From Deltaproteobacteria bacterium (GTDB lineage Bacteria > Desulfobacterota_B > Binatia > UBA9968), in assembly GCA_005879255.1 (NCBI GenBank), contig VBKY01000191.1:1-10188 (forward strand): 10,188 bases of DNA, given 5' to 3'. The notes beneath the pieces are model-generated. The model did no database searches, was not told where the DNA came from, and saw only the letters and a list, made by a program, of their open reading frames with translations. Shown here piece by piece: positions 1-10,188 of the stretch. The position numbers were made by a program, and so were the translations under genes. Each line of letters starts with the position of its first letter. Position 1 is the stretch's first letter.

Positions 1-352
1 CCTCCATCGCGCCGTCGACCTCCGATGGTACGTAGAGGCCGTGCCAATGCACTAGCTCGGGAACGTCGCTGTCATTGTGGACTTCGACGGTCACTTGCTG
101 GCCTTCCTTCATTCGGAGCAAAGGCCCGGGGGCGCTGCCGTTGTATCCAATCGTCTGGATGGATTGATTCGGTGAAAGCTCGACATTCACCGGAGCGATA
201 CGAAGTGAAAAATGCGCGGTGTCGCCAACCCGCTTGTCAGTTGAGCCGGCAGACGTAGCGGTTCGGTCGACCACAGAGCCGCAGCCCGAGAGAATTGAAA
301 CGCCGGACAATGCGGACACACCAGCCAGCTGGAGAAACTCTCTACGGTTCAT
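1..352 (-). CDS. Multicopper oxidase, Tat-exported lipoprotein (N-terminal part, runs off the left edge)
   Basis: This is the first 117 codons of a multicopper oxidase, an enzyme that couples one-electron oxidation of a substrate (phenol, Cu(I), Fe(II) or Mn(II)) to reduction of O2. The N-terminus has a twin-arginine motif (NRREFLQLAG, residues 2-11), then a hydrophobic stretch ending in a lipobox LSGC with Cys24, so the protein is probably folded before export and lipid-anchored outside the cytoplasm. Residues 46-117 form the first cupredoxin domain: the family pattern YNGSAPGP (70-77), then HWHG (102-105), whose histidines bind the type 2 and type 3 coppers. The start ATG follows GGAGGAAGCATC, an excellent ribosome binding site. 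It is the last visible gene of a minus-strand series behind a PadR promoter. The substrate and the later copper motifs cannot be judged because the gene leaves the window. Confidence 0.88.
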   Translation of the reverse strand, partial: MNRREFLQLAGVSALSGVSILSGCGSVVDRTATSAGSTDKRVGDTAHFSLRIAPVNVELSPNQSIQTIGYNGSAPGPLLRMKEGQQVTVEVHNDSDVPELVHWHGLYVPSEVDGAME

Positions 353-373
353 GATGCTTCCTCCAATCGGAAC

Positions 374-685
374 TTACCGCGACATTCTCTTTCGCAAGAC
401 CTCCAGCGCGCTGACACGGTTCGGTGGACGCCCCGGAGTTCGCAAGATTACGTGCGCGGATGCCGTTCGGCCAATTCGGGCGCGTGGCCGTCCGGATCGT
501 GGATCCAGGCGCTCAAGCCCATCAAGAACCACTTCCACCTTCCGCGCCTCACTCGCGTGCCGCTCCTTCACCTTCATGCCGAGTAGGCGTGTGTAGAAGG
601 CAACGGACCGGTCGAGATCAGCCACCGGCAGCATGGTGTGGTGAACGCGGAAGCTAAGATCTTTGACTAAACAATCGTCATTCAT
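374..685 (-). pseudogene. Glyoxalase/VOC-fold protein, internally deleted and frameshifted
   Basis: The N-terminus is a clear vicinal oxygen chelate (glyoxalase/bleomycin resistance) start: HHTMLPVADLDRSVAFYTRLLGMKV at roughly residues 15-39, covering the first beta-alpha unit and a candidate metal-ligand histidine. The open frame then turns arginine/proline-rich and runs to 374 with no family resemblance. Shifting frame near position 520 gives GLSAWIHDPDGHAPELAERH and a stop at 448-450. This is the typical VOC C-terminus with its DPDGH...E motif. Even with the frames joined, the product is only about 79 residues against the usual 120-130, so a central segment of some 40-50 residues is also missing. 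The start ATG at 685 has a strong GAGGAGGAG site upstream; the in-frame start 15 bases earlier has none. It lies between chrA and the multicopper oxidase gene. I read it as a decayed gene; a sequencing indel would explain the frame but not the missing middle. Confidence 0.7.
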
Positions 686-724
686 AAATCTCCTCCTCAA
701 AAAGTTCCGTAGATGTTCTAGTGT

Positions 725-1942
725 TTAGGTCGCGGACAACAGCTTGGAAAGCAATCCAATGATTCCCCCTCCAAGTACAAGCCATGCGGAGTTGATTTTG
801 AGACGGAAGACAAGCACGGCTGAGATCAGCGCCAAAACAGCGGTGAACCAGTCGATCACGGCGGCGCGGCCAAGTTGCCAGGTTACAGCAGCCATAAGCC
901 CTAGCGATGCCACGTTGACGCCGTCGAGAAAGCCGGAAGCCCAGGGGGATCTTCGCAACTTAGGAATGAATGGACTGCTAATTAACACAAAGACAAAGGC
1001 AGGGAGAAAAATCCCGATGGTCGCTAGTATGGCGCCGGATGAACCAGCCACCACGTAACCAACAAAAGTTGCGGTAGTGAAAACCGGACCGGGAGTAAAT
1101 TGCCCTATAGCAATTGCGTCGAGAAGTTGTTGGTCAGTGAGCCAGTGCCAACGGTCCACGAGATCAGCTCGGAGAAACGCCAGAAGCACGTAACCACTGC
1201 CAAATAGCACCGAGCCGATTTTGAGAAAGAAGAGAGTTAATTTCAGAAGACTTACGGGAACTACGGGGGTCATGGCGATTGCTGAGCTAGCATCCACTGA
1301 GCCGGAAAACATCGAGAGGATCGAGAACCCGATTAGCACACGCGTTCCTTGTTTCCAGCGACGCCAGAGATTCTCTACGGCCATCGCGACGAAGCCAGCA
1401 GAAAAAAGGAGAAAGATCTCGTTAGTCCCTAGGAAAAATAAGACCATCACGGCTGCGCCAATAAGTGCGGTGAGCGGCCCTTTAATCGCGCTTTTCCCCA
1501 ATCCCCAAAGCGCTTGGACGACGATAGCGATGATGACCGGTTTGATCCCAGAAAGTAGGAATGTTGCTTCCGGCAAAGAGCCATATCTGACGTAGAGCGA
1601 AGCCAGAATCCAGACGATCAACATGGCGGGCAGGATGAAGCAGCTTCCCGCAACGACTAAGCCTCTCCACCCAGCCCGTACTAAGCCGATGTGTATCGCC
1701 ATCTCTGTGGAGTTAGGTCCGGGAATCAGATTGGTGGCGCCAAGAAGGTCGAGAAATCGCTCGTGGTCGAGCCATCTTCGTCGGCGCACGACCTCTTCTT
1801 CCATCATAGCGATATGGGCGGCAGGACCGCCGAAGGCGATTGTTCCGAGTTTCAAGAACAGCCGTGCGAGTTCTCCCAGAGAGGTTTCTGAACGGTCCTG
1901 GTTTCCCGTCGCATGGACGACTGTCCCTGCCGGCTCACTCAT
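725..1942 (-). CDS. chrA: Chromate transporter, long-chain CHR family (paralog 1)
   Basis: A 405-aa inner-membrane transporter of the CHR family, which exports chromate using the membrane gradient. It has the two homologous halves of long-chain ChrA. The first has FGGPAAHIAMM (37-47) and NLIPGPNSTEMA (71-82); the second has FGSGYVLLAFL (247-257) and QFTPGP (281-286). The rest is mostly hydrophobic helices, with a linker at about 192-230. The ATG lies in the sequence ATGAGTGA, overlapping the end of the upstream small helical gene by 8 bases, so the two are probably translationally coupled; GAGGTG sits about 10 bases ahead. Its companions (cytochrome, isochorismatase-fold protein, multicopper oxidase) differ from classical chr operons, so the true anion could be chromate, sulfate or another oxyanion. 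It is clearly different from the other ChrA in this window. Confidence 0.9.
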   Translation of the reverse strand: MSEPAGTVVHATGNQDRSETSLGELARLFLKLGTIAFGGPAAHIAMMEEEVVRRRRWLDHERFLDLLGATNLIPGPNSTEMAIHIGLVRAGWRGLVVAGSCFILPAMLIVWILASLYVRYGSLPEATFLLSGIKPVIIAIVVQALWGLGKSAIKGPLTALIGAAVMVLFFLGTNEIFLLFSAGFVAMAVENLWRRWKQGTRVLIGFSILSMFSGSVDASSAIAMTPVVPVSLLKLTLFFLKIGSVLFGSGYVLLAFLRADLVDRWHWLTDQQLLDAIAIGQFTPGPVFTTATFVGYVVAGSSGAILATIGIFLPAFVFVLISSPFIPKLRRSPWASGFLDGVNVASLGLMAAVTWQLGRAAVIDWFTAVLALISAVLVFRLKINSAWLVLGGGIIGLLSKLLSAT

Positions 1943-2312
1943 AGTGCTCGGCCACCTCTTCGAGTGAACCCTCGGCGATTTCCAGTGCTTTCAGCGCGGT
2001 TTCTAAATCCTCGCTCGGATGCATTTTAAGAAACCTGCTGCCTTGAACTCGTAAACCTTTCACGATCTTATGCCATTGCTTAGCCTGCCGGTGTGCTTTT
2101 GGATTTCGCTTGTGTTGAATCTCGCCACCCAGGCCGGTGTGTTCGAGAGTCTCTTCCACTGTATGTTCAGCGATTTCGAGCGCGAGTGCTCCATGCGCGA
2201 GGTCTTCGTATCCGGTTTTTTTGTGGATCGCCTCGAGCTGTTTTTGCAGTCGTTTACATTCCTTCTTAAGCGCTGTCAGCTGATTTTTTTGAGCTTGCCC
2301 TAGTTGAATCAT
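1935..2312 (-). CDS. Small helical, charged protein with internal repeat, coupled to chrA
   Basis: A 125-aa soluble protein that I do not recognise. There is no signal peptide or membrane segment. Residues 4-31 look like a coiled coil rich in Lys, Gln and Leu. A motif occurs twice: ALEIAEHTVEETLEH (44-58) and ALEIAEGSLEEVAEH (109-123), with 10 of 15 positions identical. The stretch between them is basic and His-rich (residues 64-82). Histidines recur through the protein (about ten), which could allow metal binding, but no defined site is visible. AAGGAA lies about 9 bases before the ATG. Its 3' end overlaps the chrA start by 8 bases, which suggests balanced production and possibly direct partnership with this transporter. 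Confidence 0.8.
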   Translation of the reverse strand: MIQLGQAQKNQLTALKKECKRLQKQLEAIHKKTGYEDLAHGALALEIAEHTVEETLEHTGLGGEIQHKRNPKAHRQAKQWHKIVKGLRVQGSRFLKMHPSEDLETALKALEIAEGSLEEVAEHYE

Positions 2313-2362
2313 TGTCGGGTTTTCCTTTCCGTGCTTCGATATGAATGTTTTTGTCTTGCCGG

Positions 2363-3031
2363 CTATTTGATCAGATCGATTTTGGTCAACGTCACCTGTT
2401 GCCCGACGCCGGGAGAATTCGCCAAGTGATAAGCGGTATACTGCTCAAAATAAGTGTTTTCCGCCGACATACCGTCTACGGGGATGATGACTTGCAGTCC
2501 CCGGAACGCGGCCTGGCTGGCAGTGTTGAGCACGGCGCCCTGAGCAGCGGTGCCCACGATCACGACCATCTTGATGCCTTTGTCGTTTAGGATTTTTTCC
2601 AAGTCAGTCTTAAAAAACTTATCCGCCGGCGCTTTAACTATCGGTTCCCCCTCGGCTGGAGTTAATTCTTTCGCGATATCAGCCGGAGTCGCTGCCGTAG
2701 TGATGCTATGGACGACCACCACCCCTTTGTCTCTGGCGAGTTTCAACAGAGCTTGAACCTTAGGGACCGACGTCAGGCAGCGCGGCCGCCTCTCGGCATT
2801 ACAGGTCTGTTTAACAAAATCGAGAACCAGCAGTGCGGTTGTCTTGGAATCGAGCGTTACAGGTTTCAACTCCGGAGGCTTCGGCGCCTGCACTTTATCC
2901 CATTCGTCCACAATGGTTTGGGCCGATGCCGAGACGGCCCCTTGGCAGAGAAAAACACTAACCGCGATCGCAAGCGCGGCAAGCATTTTCCTGAGAATTG
3001 AATATCGCGTCTGAATAGATGTTTTTGTCAT
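2363..3031 (-). CDS. Exported isochorismatase-fold protein lacking the catalytic cysteine
   Basis: A 222-aa protein of the isochorismatase / cysteine hydrolase superfamily. The ATG at 3031 is chosen over one 12 bases upstream because GGAGGAGACC directly precedes it. Residues 1-37 form a signal peptide (basic n-region, hydrophobic 16-33, likely cleavage after ASA37), so the mature protein is periplasmic. This is unusual, because most relatives are cytosolic. The Asp of the usual triad is present in LLVLDF (Asp71). A Lys sits six residues before the conserved Phe in VKAPADKFF (Lys133). The nucleophile position in the GTAAQGAVLNTA segment is Ala166 instead of Cys. The C-terminal PVDGMSA segment matches the family. 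Normal thiol-dependent hydrolysis is therefore unlikely; a binding or scaffold role, or different chemistry, is possible. Cys29 (in the signal peptide), Cys77 and Cys85 are the only cysteines; the last two could form a disulfide. It lies 22 bases after the cytochrome gene. Confidence 0.85.
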   Translation of the reverse strand: MTKTSIQTRYSILRKMLAALAIAVSVFLCQGAVSASAQTIVDEWDKVQAPKPPELKPVTLDSKTTALLVLDFVKQTCNAERRPRCLTSVPKVQALLKLARDKGVVVVHSITTAATPADIAKELTPAEGEPIVKAPADKFFKTDLEKILNDKGIKMVVIVGTAAQGAVLNTASQAAFRGLQVIIPVDGMSAENTYFEQYTAYHLANSPGVGQQVTLTKIDLIK

Positions 3032-3053
3032 GGTCTCCTCCAAATATTAAAAT

Positions 3054-3608
3054 TTACCACTGCTGGTTGGTGACGGGCGGAGCGCTGGGTCGGATGATAC
3101 GAATGAACTTATAACCGGCCTCGGTGTGACAGCCGTTGCACGCGCTTAGAGTCTCATCGTAGGATTTTTGAAATTCAGTTTGGCTTTTGCTCTTTATGGA
3201 TTTATCTAACTCGGCAATTTGAGTCTGAAGAACGGAGTCCAGAACGTTTGAGATTTTGATTCCGTTCTTCTCCGCGTTTAAGCCTTTAGCTGCTTCCATC
3301 GTTTCCTTCAGTTCGTCAAGCTCGTATTGCGCCAAGTCCCAATTCGTAGCCCTGGCGGCAAACCAAAGTTTACCCGCGTGCATCTGAATCGTTGTCATGT
3401 ACTCGCCTAGCCCGGGTGCTAGTTCTTTTACACTTGTGAGGTCTGCCTGTACACGCTTTAGAGAATCTTGAAGAGTGGTTAGTGCACCTCGATTCGGGTC
3501 GCCAAGACTACGCATCCGGTTGTCCAATCTATTGATCCAAATTAAAAGAACAACGATCAAAACCACACAGATTATTAATGCGCTCCAAAGGTAGGTGGCA
3601 TATTTCAT
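3054..3608 (-). CDS. Membrane-anchored c-type cytochrome with C-terminal CXXCH
   Basis: A 184-aa protein with one N-terminal membrane helix (about residues 8-25) that should anchor it with the body in the periplasm. The body is predicted all-helical: an amphipathic segment at 40-64, then segments at about 68-85, 90-108 and 118-150. A single heme c site, CNGCH (157-161), is followed by a short proline-rich tail. A CXXCH close to the C-terminus of a helical bundle is the layout of class II cytochromes (c' and c-556), in which a residue in the first helix is the distal ligand. Met71 or Met76 (in MTTIQMH) could serve that role, but this is inference. The ATG follows GGGAGGATCAC. The gene begins 55 bases after padR, and a TTGACA in that gap might support a secondary promoter, though I see no good -10 box. 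It probably carries electrons for the neighbouring envelope proteins. Confidence 0.85.
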   Translation of the reverse strand: MKYATYLWSALIICVVLIVVLLIWINRLDNRMRSLGDPNRGALTTLQDSLKRVQADLTSVKELAPGLGEYMTTIQMHAGKLWFAARATNWDLAQYELDELKETMEAAKGLNAEKNGIKISNVLDSVLQTQIAELDKSIKSKSQTEFQKSYDETLSACNGCHTEAGYKFIRIIRPSAPPVTNQQW

Positions 3609-3663
3609 GTGATCCTCCCTTCATTGTTCGTTTCATTGGTTGTCAATCGCTTGATGATTCGGT

Positions 3664-4002
3664 TCATTCCTCTTCCAATAGCTCGCCAAAGAGCTCGCTG
3701 ACTTTTTGTCGCGCGGCCGCTAATGCTTTGCGCCCCAGAGCAGTCGCCTGATACATCCGCCGCACGCTCCTGCCCGACCGTTCGCTCGTTGATCGGAGGT
3801 ATCCTTTTCGTTCGAGGCCATGAAGCAAAGGATAAAGAGTCCCAGGACTGAGCTTGTAACCGTGCCGTCCGAGTTCTTCGATGAACCAGAGACCGAAAAC
3901 CGGCGCTTTGGCGGCGTGGTGAAGAATGTGGAGACGGATCAAGCCTGCGTATAGGTCCTGATCCCGTCTGTCATTAGTCGTGTTCTTAATAGATTCCTGC
4001 AT
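3664..4002 (-). CDS. PadR-family transcriptional regulator, likely autoregulated
   Basis: A 112-aa PadR-family DNA-binding protein, usually a dimeric repressor released by a small ligand. The winged helix spans about residues 18-88. The recognition region is visible in YKLSPGTLYPLLHGLERKGYL, the most diagnostic PadR signature, preceded by GLWFIEELGRHG. The C-terminal helix (about 92-112) is short, as in compact PadR-s proteins. The frame is open upstream to a GTG at 4071. I chose the ATG at 4002 because a strong promoter and a 15-bp palindrome lie between the two and the extra residues are non-family. The 5' untranslated region would then be only about 10 bases with no clear Shine-Dalgarno sequence, so translation may be near-leaderless. 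The downstream cytochrome-to-oxidase series on the same strand is the likely regulon. Confidence 0.9.
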   Translation of the reverse strand: MQESIKNTTNDRRDQDLYAGLIRLHILHHAAKAPVFGLWFIEELGRHGYKLSPGTLYPLLHGLERKGYLRSTSERSGRSVRRMYQATALGRKALAAARQKVSELFGELLEEE

Positions 4003-4007
4003 TTCGT

Positions 4008-4047
4008 TATCGATTTTCGATATAGAACCATTCGTGTCTTCTGTCAA
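4008..4047 (-). promoter_or_regulatory. padR promoter overlapping a perfect palindromic operator
   Basis: Read on the minus strand, TTGACA (4047-4042) is followed by a 17-base spacer and TATATC (4024-4019), a near-ideal sigma-70-type promoter. A perfect inverted repeat, TATCGA-TTT-TCGATA (4008-4022), overlaps the -10 box and the expected start of transcription, and ends five bases before the padR ATG. A repressor bound here would block RNA polymerase directly. This is the expected arrangement for PadR autoregulation. That PadR itself binds the site is inferred from position only. Confidence 0.75.
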
Positions 4048-6466: not shown

Positions 6467-6721
6467 ATGAATGTGCTAATTGAGATGTCTCTCGATCATT
6501 ACGACGGTCTTACCGAGAAGTGTGCAGTGGATTCTGTTGAGTTTGCGATCTTGCAAGATGCCGTCATTGTCGGCCATCCGAAGGACGGCCACTACGTGCG
6601 CACGGTGGAAATTCTGTGCAAACTGGAAGAGGCGAAAATAGTTTTCGTGTTCGCAACCAGAGCCTATCCCAACGCTGTTCCGGACATCGAAAAAGCTATT
6701 GCTGGGTCGCCGCAGAGCTAG
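6467..6721 (+). CDS. 84-aa hypothetical protein
   Basis: An 84-aa soluble protein that I do not recognise. The residue pattern looks genuine: alternating hydrophobic segments such as SVEFAILQDAVIVG and AKIVFVFATRAYP suggest beta strands with a terminal helix (DIEKAIAG), so a small alpha/beta domain is likely. No signal peptide, metal motif or catalytic motif is visible. No clear Shine-Dalgarno sequence precedes the ATG, and a second ATG lies 18 bases inside. Its stop codon overlaps the end of the CDF gene on the other strand by three bases, so the two genes converge with no room for a separate terminator. Confidence 0.6.
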   Translation: MNVLIEMSLDHYDGLTEKCAVDSVEFAILQDAVIVGHPKDGHYVRTVEILCKLEEAKIVFVFATRAYPNAVPDIEKAIAGSPQS

Positions 6722-7747
6722 AATCTCATGCGCGGTTCTCTCGCACCGTAACGACTAGCCATCGTGGTTTGCTCTGTGAAGCCATGATGTTTTTCTCCGG
6801 ACAGATCTTCCGGATCGACGTGGACCGTGACATCGAAAGATAAGGCAGGCTGTGCATCAGCTGGTGCCTCGCTTCCACAGCAATCGCGTGTCCTTCAGCG
6901 ACCGACAGCTTTGGACTTACAGCAAGATTGATCTCGGCGTGTAAACGATGGCCCGACCAGCGTAGCCGTATTTCTGTAGCGTCGCGTACACCGTGGGCAT
7001 GGTTCAGCGCATGGGTGATTTCGTCGGTCACTTCAGGATCAACACCGTCAAGCAAGCGGGTAAAAACAGTTTTTCCTGACTCCCAAACAATGGCCAGGAT
7101 GGCAACCGTGATGACGAGGCCTACGATCGGATCTGCCAATGGATAACCGAGCCAGACTGCAACCGCGCTGAACAAGACCGCTAGGCTAGTGAGACCATCC
7201 ACACGCGCATGGTAACCGTCGGCTACGAGCGCGGCGCTGTTGATTTGCTTACCTACTCGGATGCGTAAGATCGCCACAGCCTCGTTACCGGCGAACCCAA
7301 TGATCGCCGCCAACACTACTACCCATAAATGGTCAATGGGTTGCGGATTGCGTAGACGGTAGATGGATTCGTAGCCGGCCAGAAGCGCGCTGGATAAGAT
7401 GGTCAGGACGATCATGACCCCGGCTACGTCTTCCACACGGCCATAACCGTAAGTGAAGCGACGGGAGGATTGTCGCCGCGCCAGGGTAAACGCAATCCAC
7501 AAAGGAATGGCGGTCGCCGCGTCGGCAATGTTGTGTATCGTGTCGGCAAGCAGAGCCACACTTCCAGAAAAGAAGACGACAACCACTTGGAATGCAGCCG
7601 TGACAGCCAGGCCGATGAGAGACCACTTGTGACCGCCCAAATACCGCGCTCTGTGGTGAGCAGTTCCGGATCGATCGTCCCGTGGGTGTGATCATGATGG
7701 CTATGATCTGAATCGCTATGAGGATGAGAATGGTCGACAGCGCTCAT
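6718..7747 (-). pseudogene. Cation diffusion facilitator (CzcD-like), two frameshifts
   Basis: This encodes a CDF-family divalent cation/proton antiporter (Zn, Co or Cd efflux), but the frame is broken twice. From the ATG at 7747 the product begins with a His-rich region (HSHPHSDSDHSHHDHTHG), then GTIDPELLTTERGIWAV. Near 7636 two extra bases (a repeated CA) break the frame, and the transporter resumes as KWSLIGLAVTAAFQ. The middle is intact, with metal-site motifs HNIAD in helix 2 and HARVD in helix 5 (the HxxxD pair of zinc-type CDFs). Near 6821 one base is missing; the true C-terminus, FDVTVHVDP, continues to TAG at 6718-6720, while the uncorrected frame stops at 6726. The two changes leave 1030 bases, one more than the 343 codons of a normal gene. 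Either this is a recent pseudogene or both are indel errors. Confidence 0.85.
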
Positions 7748-7843
7748 AAAAAAAATCATACTCCACGGCAATGCGATACGCCACGTAAACGATGTTGGAT
7801 TAACTACATCATAGAATTTCATTGCCTGCAGTCTGCCGGTTAC

Positions 7844-7888
7844 ACCGTGTTTAACCCATTCGTACAGCACGGGCAGTAGCACCAGCGT
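7844..7888 (-). pseudogene. Possible C-terminal scrap of an RND metal efflux pump
   Basis: The minus-strand peptide TLVLLPVLYEWVKHG resembles the last membrane helix of CzcA/CusA-type RND pumps, which typically end in a TLLVLPVLYRWF-like stretch. A stop codon in the same frame lies immediately upstream, so nothing else of the pump remains. It sits ahead of the CDF gene and in the same frame, as expected if a czc-type RND-CDF operon was truncated when chrA came to lie next to it. The match is short and could be chance. Confidence 0.35.
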
Positions 7889-9189: not shown

Positions 9190-9783
9190 CTAGGCGCGCT
9201 CGTGGTTTCGATAAAGAGCGGAAACGTTTTCCCATTTGATATTGTTCATAAAGGCGTCTACATAAGCTGGCGCCTTGGCGCCGTAGTCAATGTGATAGGA
9301 ATGTTCATACATATCCAGCGCGAGGATTGGGCTTGCTCCGGCCAAACAACAGGTATGATCCGCAGCCCACTGGTTGACGAGTTTCTTGTCTCGAGGTGAG
9401 TAAGTCAGCAATACCCAACCTGATCCGCCACCAAGCGCTTTGCCCATCGCGGCAAATTGGATTTGCCACTTTTCCACACTGCCAAAGTCTCGGGCCAGTG
9501 CACCTCTCAAATCTCCTTCGGGCTGGCTCCCGCCGCCCAGACTGTCAAAATAGAGTTCATGCAGGATCATGGAGTTGCTAGCGATTAGCTCTTCACGCTT
9601 GAGCCCGTTGATCACGAAGACCGGCGCAGTGGCAAAATCTAGAGACTCTAGCTGCGCTGTGATGGCATTGAGACGCTTTACCGCACCGCCGTAGTTGTTT
9701 TCATAATGGCTGACGATAAGTTTTTCGGACAGGCCTTTCAGTTTGGCAGGGTTGCAGGATAGCGTTTTGATTTCGTATGTCAT
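9190..9783 (-). CDS. chrC: Fe/Mn superoxide dismutase, ChrC type
   Basis: A 197-aa Fe/Mn superoxide dismutase with all four metal ligands in place: His26 (SHYENNYGG), His75 (ILHELYFDSLGG), Asp157 and His161 (LDMYEHSYHIDYG). GGGSGWVLL (118-126) is also typical. At the hydrogen-bonding position usually held by Gln there is probably His143 (WAADHT), as in some actinobacterial iron enzymes. Two residues of the canonical substrate gate differ: His30 is Asn and Tyr34 is Ala, judged by spacing from His26. There is no signal peptide, so it is cytosolic. Placement between chrB and chrA matches ChrC of known chromate operons, which protects against superoxide formed as Cr(VI) is reduced. AAAAGGAAGAGGAACC before the ATG is a good ribosome binding site. 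Confidence 0.92.
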   Translation of the reverse strand: MTYEIKTLSCNPAKLKGLSEKLIVSHYENNYGGAVKRLNAITAQLESLDFATAPVFVINGLKREELIASNSMILHELYFDSLGGGSQPEGDLRGALARDFGSVEKWQIQFAAMGKALGGGSGWVLLTYSPRDKKLVNQWAADHTCCLAGASPILALDMYEHSYHIDYGAKAPAYVDAFMNNIKWENVSALYRNHERA

Positions 9784-9824: not shown

Positions 9825-10188
9825 CTAATTCGTGGGACCTCCGGCGGATCTGTTTTGCCCAGTCGTTTGCTGGCAATACGCGTACAGCGCGTCGTACACG
9901 GACGACTCCCGTTCCAGTAGCTCGTGGTCATTGCTGTAGACGAGTCTGAAACCCTCGGCAATTGCCTCTAAGCCTGGTGATTCTGGGGTCAGATGCTTCG
10001 CGGCCGTATCGGCTCCTCTGACAATCACCGCAAGTCGCTGCAGCGCCTGATCGGTGAGCTGATACTTTTTTATGATGGCGTCAAAGCTACACTCAGGGCC
10101 ATTGTGTCCGAGTTCGACGTTCGCCACATCGAAAGGAATAGCGTCTTCGCGCTTCGCAATCTCCATCACCTGATCGGGCGGCACGTAT
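9825..10188 (-). CDS. chrB: Chromate resistance protein ChrB, C-terminal part (runs off the right edge)
   Basis: The last 120 or so residues of ChrB, with the upstream part outside the window. The C-terminal ChrB domain is recognisable from YVPPDQVMEIAKREDAIPFD, then the segment with GPECSFDAIIKKY, then LAVIVRGADT and NDHELLERESSVYDALYAYC. ChrB proteins are chromate-responsive regulators or accessory factors of chr operons. This domain carries conserved Asp, Glu and His residues that may bind metal or chromate; in some relatives it occurs alone without the DNA-binding half, and this window cannot tell which form it is. A GTG inside the frame at about 10184 has no ribosome binding site visible, and homology continues upstream of it. 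The gene lies 41 bases ahead of chrC and heads the operon in view. Confidence 0.88.
   Translation of the reverse strand, partial: YVPPDQVMEIAKREDAIPFDVANVELGHNGPECSFDAIIKKYQLTDQALQRLAVIVRGADTAAKHLTPESPGLEAIAEGFRLVYSNDHELLERESSVYDALYAYCQQTTGQNRSAGGPTN

What the first reader, a model, noticed from the sequence alone, without database searches (positions are those of the whole stretch)
1..4047. Undescribed PadR-controlled envelope redox operon built around a ChrA transporter
Seven consecutive minus-strand genes with short gaps or overlap and strong ribosome binding sites: PadR, membrane cytochrome c, exported isochorismatase-fold protein, small repeat protein, ChrA, VOC-fold remnant, Tat-lipoprotein multicopper oxidase. 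Several gene products (cytochrome, isochorismatase-fold protein, oxidase) act outside the cytoplasm and two or three are redox proteins. ChrA operons are normally linked to ChrB, ChrC or ChrF. A plausible idea is oxyanion or metal redox detoxification at the envelope with transport, but the substrate is unknown.
Basis: partly seen in the sequence, partly recalled or inferred. Interest (0 to 1): 0.72.

Follow-up and report, generated by a model that had tools for sequence, protein, structure and literature searches.

The report
PadR-controlled chromate-efflux operon with new partner
In DNA that probably comes from an uncultured bacterium, genes thought to pump out toxic chromate sit in one row behind a likely switch, and a small uncharacterised protein gene in that row overlapped a chromate-pump gene in each of the six genomes where it was found.

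Summary
The row of seven minus-strand frames is real. PadR beside chrA is also described: chrIA1 of Bacillus cereus SJ1 is chromate-induced (PMC2936356). Chromate is the likely substrate (inference). New here: (1) a 125-aa predicted four-helix protein without Pfam or NCBIfam match above cut-off; in 6 of 6 genome loci found, from three phyla by record title, a chrA starts 8 bases inside its 3' end, with two ChrA types; (2) a candidate operator, TATCG-N5-CGATA, upstream in 18 of 29 loci of this PadR type, against 40 sites in about 40.6 Mb of eight genomes. The cytochrome is a lineage-limited partner and the oxidase recurs in one relative. The isochorismatase-like gene (0 of 18 homolog places near ChrA) and the frame-broken VOC gene look like passengers. 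Against a fixed system: 27 of 33 close ChrA orthologs lack all these partners. Verdict: new variant of a known kind.

The parts
4008..4022 (-). Candidate PadR operator, perfect palindrome TATCG-N5-CGATA, just 5' of the inferred PadR start
   Evidence: 1 match at up to 2 mismatches, 0.01 expected; exact in 18 of 29 PadR-type loci; 40 sites in about 40.6 Mb of eight genomes
3664..4002 (-). PadR-family repressor (Rv3488-like in sequence, ChrI-like by context); listed frame runs to 4071, start at 4002 inferred from where homologs begin
3054..3608 (-). Membrane-anchored cytochrome c'-like protein: N-terminal hydrophobic helix, helical bundle, C-terminal CxxCH
   Evidence: beside ChrA in L002/L007 and L009
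2363..3043 (-). Exported isochorismatase-fold protein without the catalytic cysteine; probably a passenger
   Evidence: Cys site is Ala in 121 of 121 rows; 0 of 18 homolog places near ChrA
1935..2312 (-). 125-aa predicted four-helix protein with internal duplication (residues 35-60 and 100-125), ChrA-linked family
725..1942 (-). ChrA (second copy in window), long two-domain CHR transporter; its ATG lies 8 bases inside the 125-aa gene
   Evidence: (TIGR00937, 355 bits, cut-off 171.7)
374..700 (-). VOC/glyoxalase-fold remnant, frame-broken
2..352 (-). Start of Tat-type lipoprotein multicopper oxidase (CueO/CopA-like; signal read by eye), cut by window edge
   Evidence: 71% identical stretch directly after ChrA in L002
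7914..9152 (-). First ChrA of the window, upstream part of the same chr locus
   Evidence: in L002 a ChrA 3' end 62% identical over 45 aa lies before the cytochrome
9190..9783 (-). Fe/Mn superoxide dismutase in ChrC-type position between chrB and chrA
9825..10187 (-). ChrB C-terminal domain, cut by window edge
   Evidence: PF09828, 102 bits

Best explanation
This is the downstream half of an extended chromate-resistance (chr) locus of an uncultured bacterium, probably of the Binatia (inferred). A PadR repressor of the ChrI kind sits on the palindrome TATCG-N5-CGATA at its own start and, when chromate enters the cell, releases a polycistronic message (shown: palindrome and gene order; inferred: repression and inducer). 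ChrA then exports chromate from the cytoplasm (inferred from family). The 125-aa four-helix protein is made together with ChrA through a start codon inside its 3' end and is most likely a cytosolic ChrA partner, either part of the transporter complex or a binder that hands over the oxyanion or masks Cr(III) or another metal (conserved overlap shown; role inferred from its pairing with two ChrA types and from conserved His/Glu positions). The anchored cytochrome c'-like protein and the oxidase act on the outer face, where they could handle electrons or reactive products of chromate reduction (inferred). ChrB, superoxide dismutase and the first ChrA upstream belong to the same system (inferred from context and two relatives).
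For: ChrB_C, SOD and a first ChrA in the same window and strand; L009/L038 has ChrB divergent from ChrA-CDF-cytochrome-ChrA, and L002 has ChrA-cytochrome-125 aa-ChrA-oxidase. A PadR-chrA pair with chromate induction of chrI and chrA1 is in print (PMC2936356, passages seen); PadR of 69-72% identity directly follows chrA in 4 of 4 Pseudomonas plasmid records read (two carry the same proteins). In the class of G002, 11 of the 20 PadR genes with at least 65% identity have ChrA in the stretch held. The palindrome is exact upstream of 18 of 29 such loci and within one mismatch in 24 of 29; it occurs 40 times in about 40.6 Mb of eight genomes and once in 571 kb of 96 fetched loci without this PadR. 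125-aa family: 6 of 6 genome loci followed by chrA, ATG at the same 8-base overlap in 6 of 6 plus the window.
Against: 27 of 33 close ChrA orthologs in the class lack every other gene of the window in the stretch fetched, so partners are optional. The 125-aa family was found in only 4 of 148, 1 of 95 and 1 of 29 genomes searched, and the scan that found it used two conserved peptides only, so 6 of 6 is a small sample. G002 has no PadR of this type and its L002 has none before the cytochrome. The same PadR type also precedes outer-membrane efflux (OEP) genes in five loci, so operator and PadR alone do not prove a chromate response. L004 has PadR-125 aa-ChrA without the palindrome within 301 bases. 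No expression data were available.
Confidence: 0.62

Rival explanations
1. The unit exports another oxyanion or relieves sulfur-oxyanion stress (sulfate, sulfite, thiosulfate), with chromate as a look-alike.
For: TauE/SafE sulfite-exporter-like genes stand before PadR-ChrA in six loci (L096, L097, L099, L100, L105, L106; Pfam tested for one); TauE/SafE is divergent beside chrA-padR in L092, and SulP follows PadR in L093 and L094.
Against: ChrB and the SOD in the same window are typical of chromate loci; the one tested PadR-chrA pair that I found responds to chromate.
Confidence: 0.17
2. Cytochrome, isochorismatase-like protein and oxidase are a separate envelope or copper module that merely lies between PadR and ChrA or behind it; only PadR-125 aa-ChrA is the working unit. 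(Not exclusive with the best explanation's core.)
For: PadR-125 aa-ChrA without a cytochrome between them in L001, L003, L004, L005; isochorismatase-like gene near ChrA in 0 of 18 places; oxidase start is CueO/CopA-like.
Against: The close cytochrome was beside ChrA in both genomes that hold it (G002, G139), a distant one (26% identity) follows ChrA in L004, and an oxidase follows ChrA in L002.
Confidence: 0.3
3. The neighbourhood is a loose island of metal-stress genes under several promoters, without a shared function.
For: Most ChrA orthologs read lack the partners (27 of 33); CNNM, CDF and a plus-strand frame lie between the two halves; VOC and CDF are frame-broken.
Against: 8-base overlap conserved in six genomes from three phyla by title; gaps of at most 55 bases; PadR with its palindrome at the head.
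Confidence: 0.13

Closest known systems
chrIA1 operon of Bacillus cereus SJ1 (PMC2936356)
   Same: PadR-family regulator gene and chrA in one operon; there both are chromate-induced (passages seen)
   Different: Here a cytochrome, an isochorismatase-like gene and the 125-aa gene lie between PadR and ChrA, and an oxidase follows; the ChrI sequence was not compared
chrBCA-type chromate determinants (recalled from the literature)
   Same: ChrB, SOD (ChrC position) and ChrA are in the window in that order
   Different: A second ChrA with its own PadR and extra envelope genes; no ChrF among the frames scanned
chrA-padR units on Pseudomonas and other plasmids
   Same: PadR 69-72% identical; chrA directly before padR in the four annotated Pseudomonas records read; palindrome upstream of chrA exact in two and with one mismatch in two
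   Different: Order chrA-padR, ChrA only about 30% identical, no 125-aa match in plasmids
Arthrobacter FB24 chromate determinant with accessory chrJ, chrK, chrL (PMC2751784)
   Same: Precedent for extra genes next to chrA that raise chromate resistance (passages seen)
   Different: Its text holds neither 'cytochrome' nor 'multicopper'; sequences of chrJ/K/L not compared here
Class II cytochromes c'
   Same: Predicted helical bundle, C-terminal CxxCH; weak PF01322 match E 0.0042; Foldseek 1jaf E 0.064
   Different: Membrane anchor, below Pfam's cut-off, extra His77 invariant in the 28 aligned sequences

Membership tests
ChrA (CHR superfamily, long two-domain form) | Two Chromate_transp domains, score above TIGR00937 cut-off | tested here: met
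   PF02417 with 2 stretches; TIGR00937 355 bits against 171.7
ChrA (CHR superfamily, long two-domain form) | Chromate efflux activity | not testable with these tools
   needs transport or resistance assay
ChrI/chrIA-type PadR-chrA operon | PadR gene in one operon-like row with chrA | tested here: met
   three genes intervene in the window, PadR directly before ChrA in L051, L058, L063
ChrI/chrIA-type PadR-chrA operon | Sequence relationship to ChrI of B. cereus SJ1 | not tested
   ChrI sequence was not fetched
ChrI/chrIA-type PadR-chrA operon | Induction by chromate | not testable with these tools
   needs expression data
Rv3488-type PadR (NF053635) | Score above NCBI's cut-off | tested here: not met
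   105.4 bits against 140; related to, not filed in, this equivalog
chrBCA determinant | ChrB, ChrC (SOD) and ChrA in one row | tested here: met
   ChrB is cut by the window edge, so only its C-terminal domain was tested; the SOD was filed as SOD, its ChrC role is by position
Cytochrome c' (PF01322) | Score above Pfam's gathering cut-off | tested here: not met
   18.5 bits against 26.5
Cytochrome c' (PF01322) | Four-helix bundle with C-terminal CxxCH | tested here: inconclusive
   mean pLDDT 72.6, best c' match Foldseek E 0.064; CxxCH in 119 of the 120 listed homologs
Isochorismatase-type cysteine hydrolase | Catalytic Asp-Lys-Cys triad | tested here: not met
   window plus 120 best of 2824 homologs: Asp75 121 of 121, Lys137 120 and Lys142 121 of 121, Cys site is Ala170 in 121 of 121 (sites assigned by motif, recalled)
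125-aa protein in any Pfam or NCBIfam family | Match above cut-off | tested here: not met
   none above a curated cut-off
Ferritin/rubrerythrin-like or hemerythrin-like bundle (for the 125-aa protein) | Clear fold match and metal-ligand motifs | tested here: inconclusive

The most novel reading that the evidence does not exclude
The 125-aa family is a dedicated cytosolic subunit or oxyanion/chromium-binding gate of ChrA, co-translated with it and exchanged between distant ChrA types, and together with an anchored cytochrome c'-like protein it forms a chromate efflux machine that couples export with periplasmic redox handling, under a PadR switch whose 15-bp operator is shared from a Chloroflexi genome to Pseudomonas plasmids.
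Probability: 0.25. Interest if true: 0.62.

Novelty: new variant of a known kind. Interest (0 to 1): 0.42.

Why it matters
ChrA is usually treated as a stand-alone pump (general knowledge). A protein family that preceded it in all six genome loci found, with the pump's start codon inside its gene, in three phyla and with two ChrA types, is a concrete candidate for a missing partner and can be tested in one genetic experiment. The palindrome gives this PadR type, close to the regulator beside chrA on many plasmids, a DNA target that can be tested directly and used to find further members of its regulon.

Tried and rejected
Rejected: (a) that the ChrA is unlinked to ChrB/ChrC. (b) Isochorismatase-like protein as a core member (stretches held reach about 1.5 kb to each side); it belongs to a large exported-looking family (2824 hits, best 120 listed). 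Against this rejection: the equal-contig-length test below leans towards co-location with the 125-aa gene in close metagenome relatives. (c) VOC as an active partner (frame-broken). (d) A known fold for the 125-aa protein: only common helical-bundle matches; the cytochrome model is of middling confidence. (e) Equal longest-contig lengths among the three tables of 120 homologs as a sign of co-location: 6, 5 and 7 shared lengths against null means of 2.4, 2.2 and 2.1 (null maxima 6, 6, 7); for lengths of 2000 or more, 3, 2 and 4 against 0.33, 0.62 and 0.53 (cytochrome-small, cytochrome-isochorismatase, small-isochorismatase). Suggestive, not used. (f) The 125-aa protein in 72,556 plasmid records: no match at E 0.01. 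(g) Papers: PadR with 'chromate transporter' 2; Rv3488 6, listing only; 'chromate', 'cytochrome c', 'chrA operon' none; 'padr family', 'tatcga', 'operator' none; Binatota with chromate 1, listing only; listing only apart from the two papers named. The library holds open-licence PMC text only.

Rows dropped before counts: five partial ChrA hits (G108 twice, G036, G112, G039) and all weaker ChrA hits were left out of the 33; nine weaker ChrA loci that I read (L082-L090, 30-36% identity) have ChrB beside ChrA in five. In the 29-locus table L094 was left out (same motif stretch as L093) and re-fetched copies of L001, L003, L051, L058, L063 were counted once; upstream of TauE or chrA was taken where these lead the unit. 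Two of the 29 (L116, L117) are distant PadR at 43% identity, and L004 and L005 are 50-52%. A first background count (0 in 564 kb of 95 loci) had wrongly left out L042, which holds one site; the mended count is 1 in 571 kb of 96 loci.
Full report
Observation. Pfam finds PadR, isochorismatase, ChrA (two domains), a short VOC match and the start of a multicopper oxidase; the 125-aa protein and the cytochrome have only sub-threshold matches. Gaps are at most 55 bases (read), and the 125-aa gene and chrA overlap by 8. The VOC gene is broken: its Pfam match stops at profile position 32 of 121 and VOC-like residues continue in another frame.

Wider context. On the same strand upstream are the ChrB C-terminal domain, an Fe/Mn superoxide dismutase and a first ChrA, then a cation-efflux gene and a CNNM/CorC gene. 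No whole genome is held for the window. Few homologs carry an organism name: Candidatus Binatia (P0073, P0101, P0193, P0281, P0287), one Deltaproteobacteria (P0219) and one Acidoferrales (P0343, a more distant isochorismatase). Near-syntenic loci lie in the class of G002, where the records that I saw titled say Deltaproteobacteria; the tool names no group. I take window and class as probably Binatia, which is inference.

The 125-aa family. The protein search gave 716 relatives at E 0.001, 120 listed. A scan of genomes of 84,980 species, through two conserved peptides, gave 6 loci, titled Deltaproteobacteria (4), Rokuibacteriota (1) and Chloroflexi (1). In all 6 a ChrA gene follows directly, and in 6 of 6 plus the window an ATG stands 8 bases before the end of the stop codon. 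In L006 only the last 38 residues match, so that copy looks truncated. PadR is directly upstream in 4 of 6 (L001, L003, L004, L005); the cytochrome is upstream in L002. The ChrA is 63-64% identical to the window's in L002 and L005 but about 30% in L001, L003, L004 and L006: the small gene keeps company with two ChrA types. Profile searches found it in 4 of 148, 1 of 95 and 1 of 29 genomes, the same six. The model is four helices, mean pLDDT 88.4, pTM 0.67. Residues 35-60 and 100-125 look like an internal duplication, 13 of 26 identical, a score not reached in 300 shuffles. Tyr35, Asp37, His50, Glu54, His58, Trp80 and Asp102 are invariant in the 121 rows aligned (window and 120 best homologs).

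The cytochrome. 32 of 148 genomes in the class have a match at E 0.001, but only G002 and G139 have a close one (E below 1e-50), and in both it is beside ChrA: L002 is ChrA end-cytochrome-125 aa-ChrA-oxidase, L009/L038 is ChrA-CDF-cytochrome-ChrA with ChrB divergent. In the 28 loci fetched for distant relatives (L010-L037) no other window gene was seen in the short stretches held. A distant relative (26% identity) follows ChrA in the Rokuibacteriota locus L004. The protein has an N-terminal hydrophobic helix, a C-terminal CxxCH in 119 of 120 listed homologs and a weak resemblance to cytochromes c'.

Isochorismatase-like protein. 18 homolog places in 11 of 148 genomes; none has ChrA in the stretch held. 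It is absent from L002 and L009. I treat it as a passenger, though shared contig lengths hint that it stays beside the 125-aa gene in some close metagenome relatives.

ChrA orthologs. 33 of 148 genomes have a near-full-length one at 54% identity or more. Of these, 27 show none of the window's other genes in the fetched stretch; the six others: PadR in L051, L058 and L063, ChrB also in L051, a weak SOD match (23%) and a second ChrA in L062, the cytochrome, CDF, CNNM and ChrB in L038, and cytochrome, 125-aa gene and oxidase in L002. Some stretches end at contig ends, so these are lower bounds. The seven-gene row is thus not general for this ChrA; it looks like a lineage-specific build-up.

PadR and its operator. 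TATCGAAAATCGATA lies at 4008-4022, just before the inferred PadR start. In a table of 29 distinct loci of this PadR type (22 from the 148 genomes; the window; L004, L005; four plasmid records) TATCG-N5-CGATA is exact within about 300 bases upstream of the unit in 18 and within one mismatch in 24. The five without are L004, L097, L109, L116, L117. Eight whole genomes hold 40 exact sites in about 40.6 Mb, against 13 for the pattern read backwards; 96 fetched loci without this PadR hold one in 571 kb. Where TauE/SafE leads the unit the site lies before TauE in five of six loci, and on plasmids it lies before chrA, exact in two and with one mismatch in two of four, as expected for an operator. In nine loci two sites overlap at a 13-base step, one or both of them inexact. 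Of the 20 PadR genes with at least 65% identity in the class, 11 have ChrA in the stretch held. Five others precede outer-membrane efflux (OEP) genes (L103, L108, L109, L113, L115), with one exact site (L115), three at one mismatch (L103, L108, L113) and none in L109, so the operator marks the PadR type, not chromate alone.

Literature. In Bacillus cereus SJ1 chrI (PadR family) and chrA1 form an operon and are induced by chromate, and the authors note PadR-chrA neighbours in other genera (PMC2936356; passages seen). Arthrobacter FB24 shows accessory genes beside chrA that raise resistance (PMC2751784; passages seen). Five papers hold chrA, padR and IS6100 together (listing only). I found no paper on the operator sequence and none on such a cytochrome-chrA operon; the 125-aa family has no name to search for. 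These searches cover only open-licence PMC text.

Mechanism. Shown: gene order, conserved overlap, palindrome and its distribution. Inferred: repression by PadR and release by chromate; chromate as substrate; partnership of the 125-aa protein with ChrA; periplasmic redox role of cytochrome and oxidase. The periplasmic redox step is the weakest link, since the oxidase was seen beside this ChrA in one relative only and the close cytochrome in two.

Verdict. It is a new variant of a known kind, with one new element, the ChrA-coupled 125-aa family, and one testable regulatory prediction.

Noticed in passing
window 7424-7882 and 6726-7640 (-): The cation-efflux gene is split over two frames: a His-rich N-terminus in one frame and the rest in another, whereas G139 has it in one frame. 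Could be a frameshift or a sequence error.
   Followed up: no
L103, L108, L109, L113, L115: The same PadR type precedes outer-membrane efflux (OEP, PF02321) genes; palindrome exact in one, one mismatch in three, none in one, hinting at a wider PadR efflux regulon.
   Followed up: partly
L096, L097, L099, L100, L105, L106: TauE/SafE-PadR-ChrA recurs as a three-gene unit in the class of G002 (Pfam tested for L051/L105 only).
   Followed up: partly
L038, L082, L084, L085, L087: A DUF1259 (PF07485) gene stands near ChrB and/or ChrA; possible further chr accessory (Pfam tested for L038).
   Followed up: no
L001 7095-9443: A row that looks like arsenic genes (HTH regulator, LMW phosphatase-fold ArsC-like, SBF-family ACR3-like; a VOC gene between them by eye) is divergent from PadR-125 aa-ChrA.
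   Followed up: partly
window 6467-6721 (+): An 84-aa plus-strand frame without a Pfam match lies between the CNNM and cation-efflux genes.
   Followed up: no
plasmid records: 1865 of 72,556 plasmid records hold a relative of this PadR (1822 of them at 60-80% identity), mostly in Klebsiella and Escherichia.
   Followed up: partly
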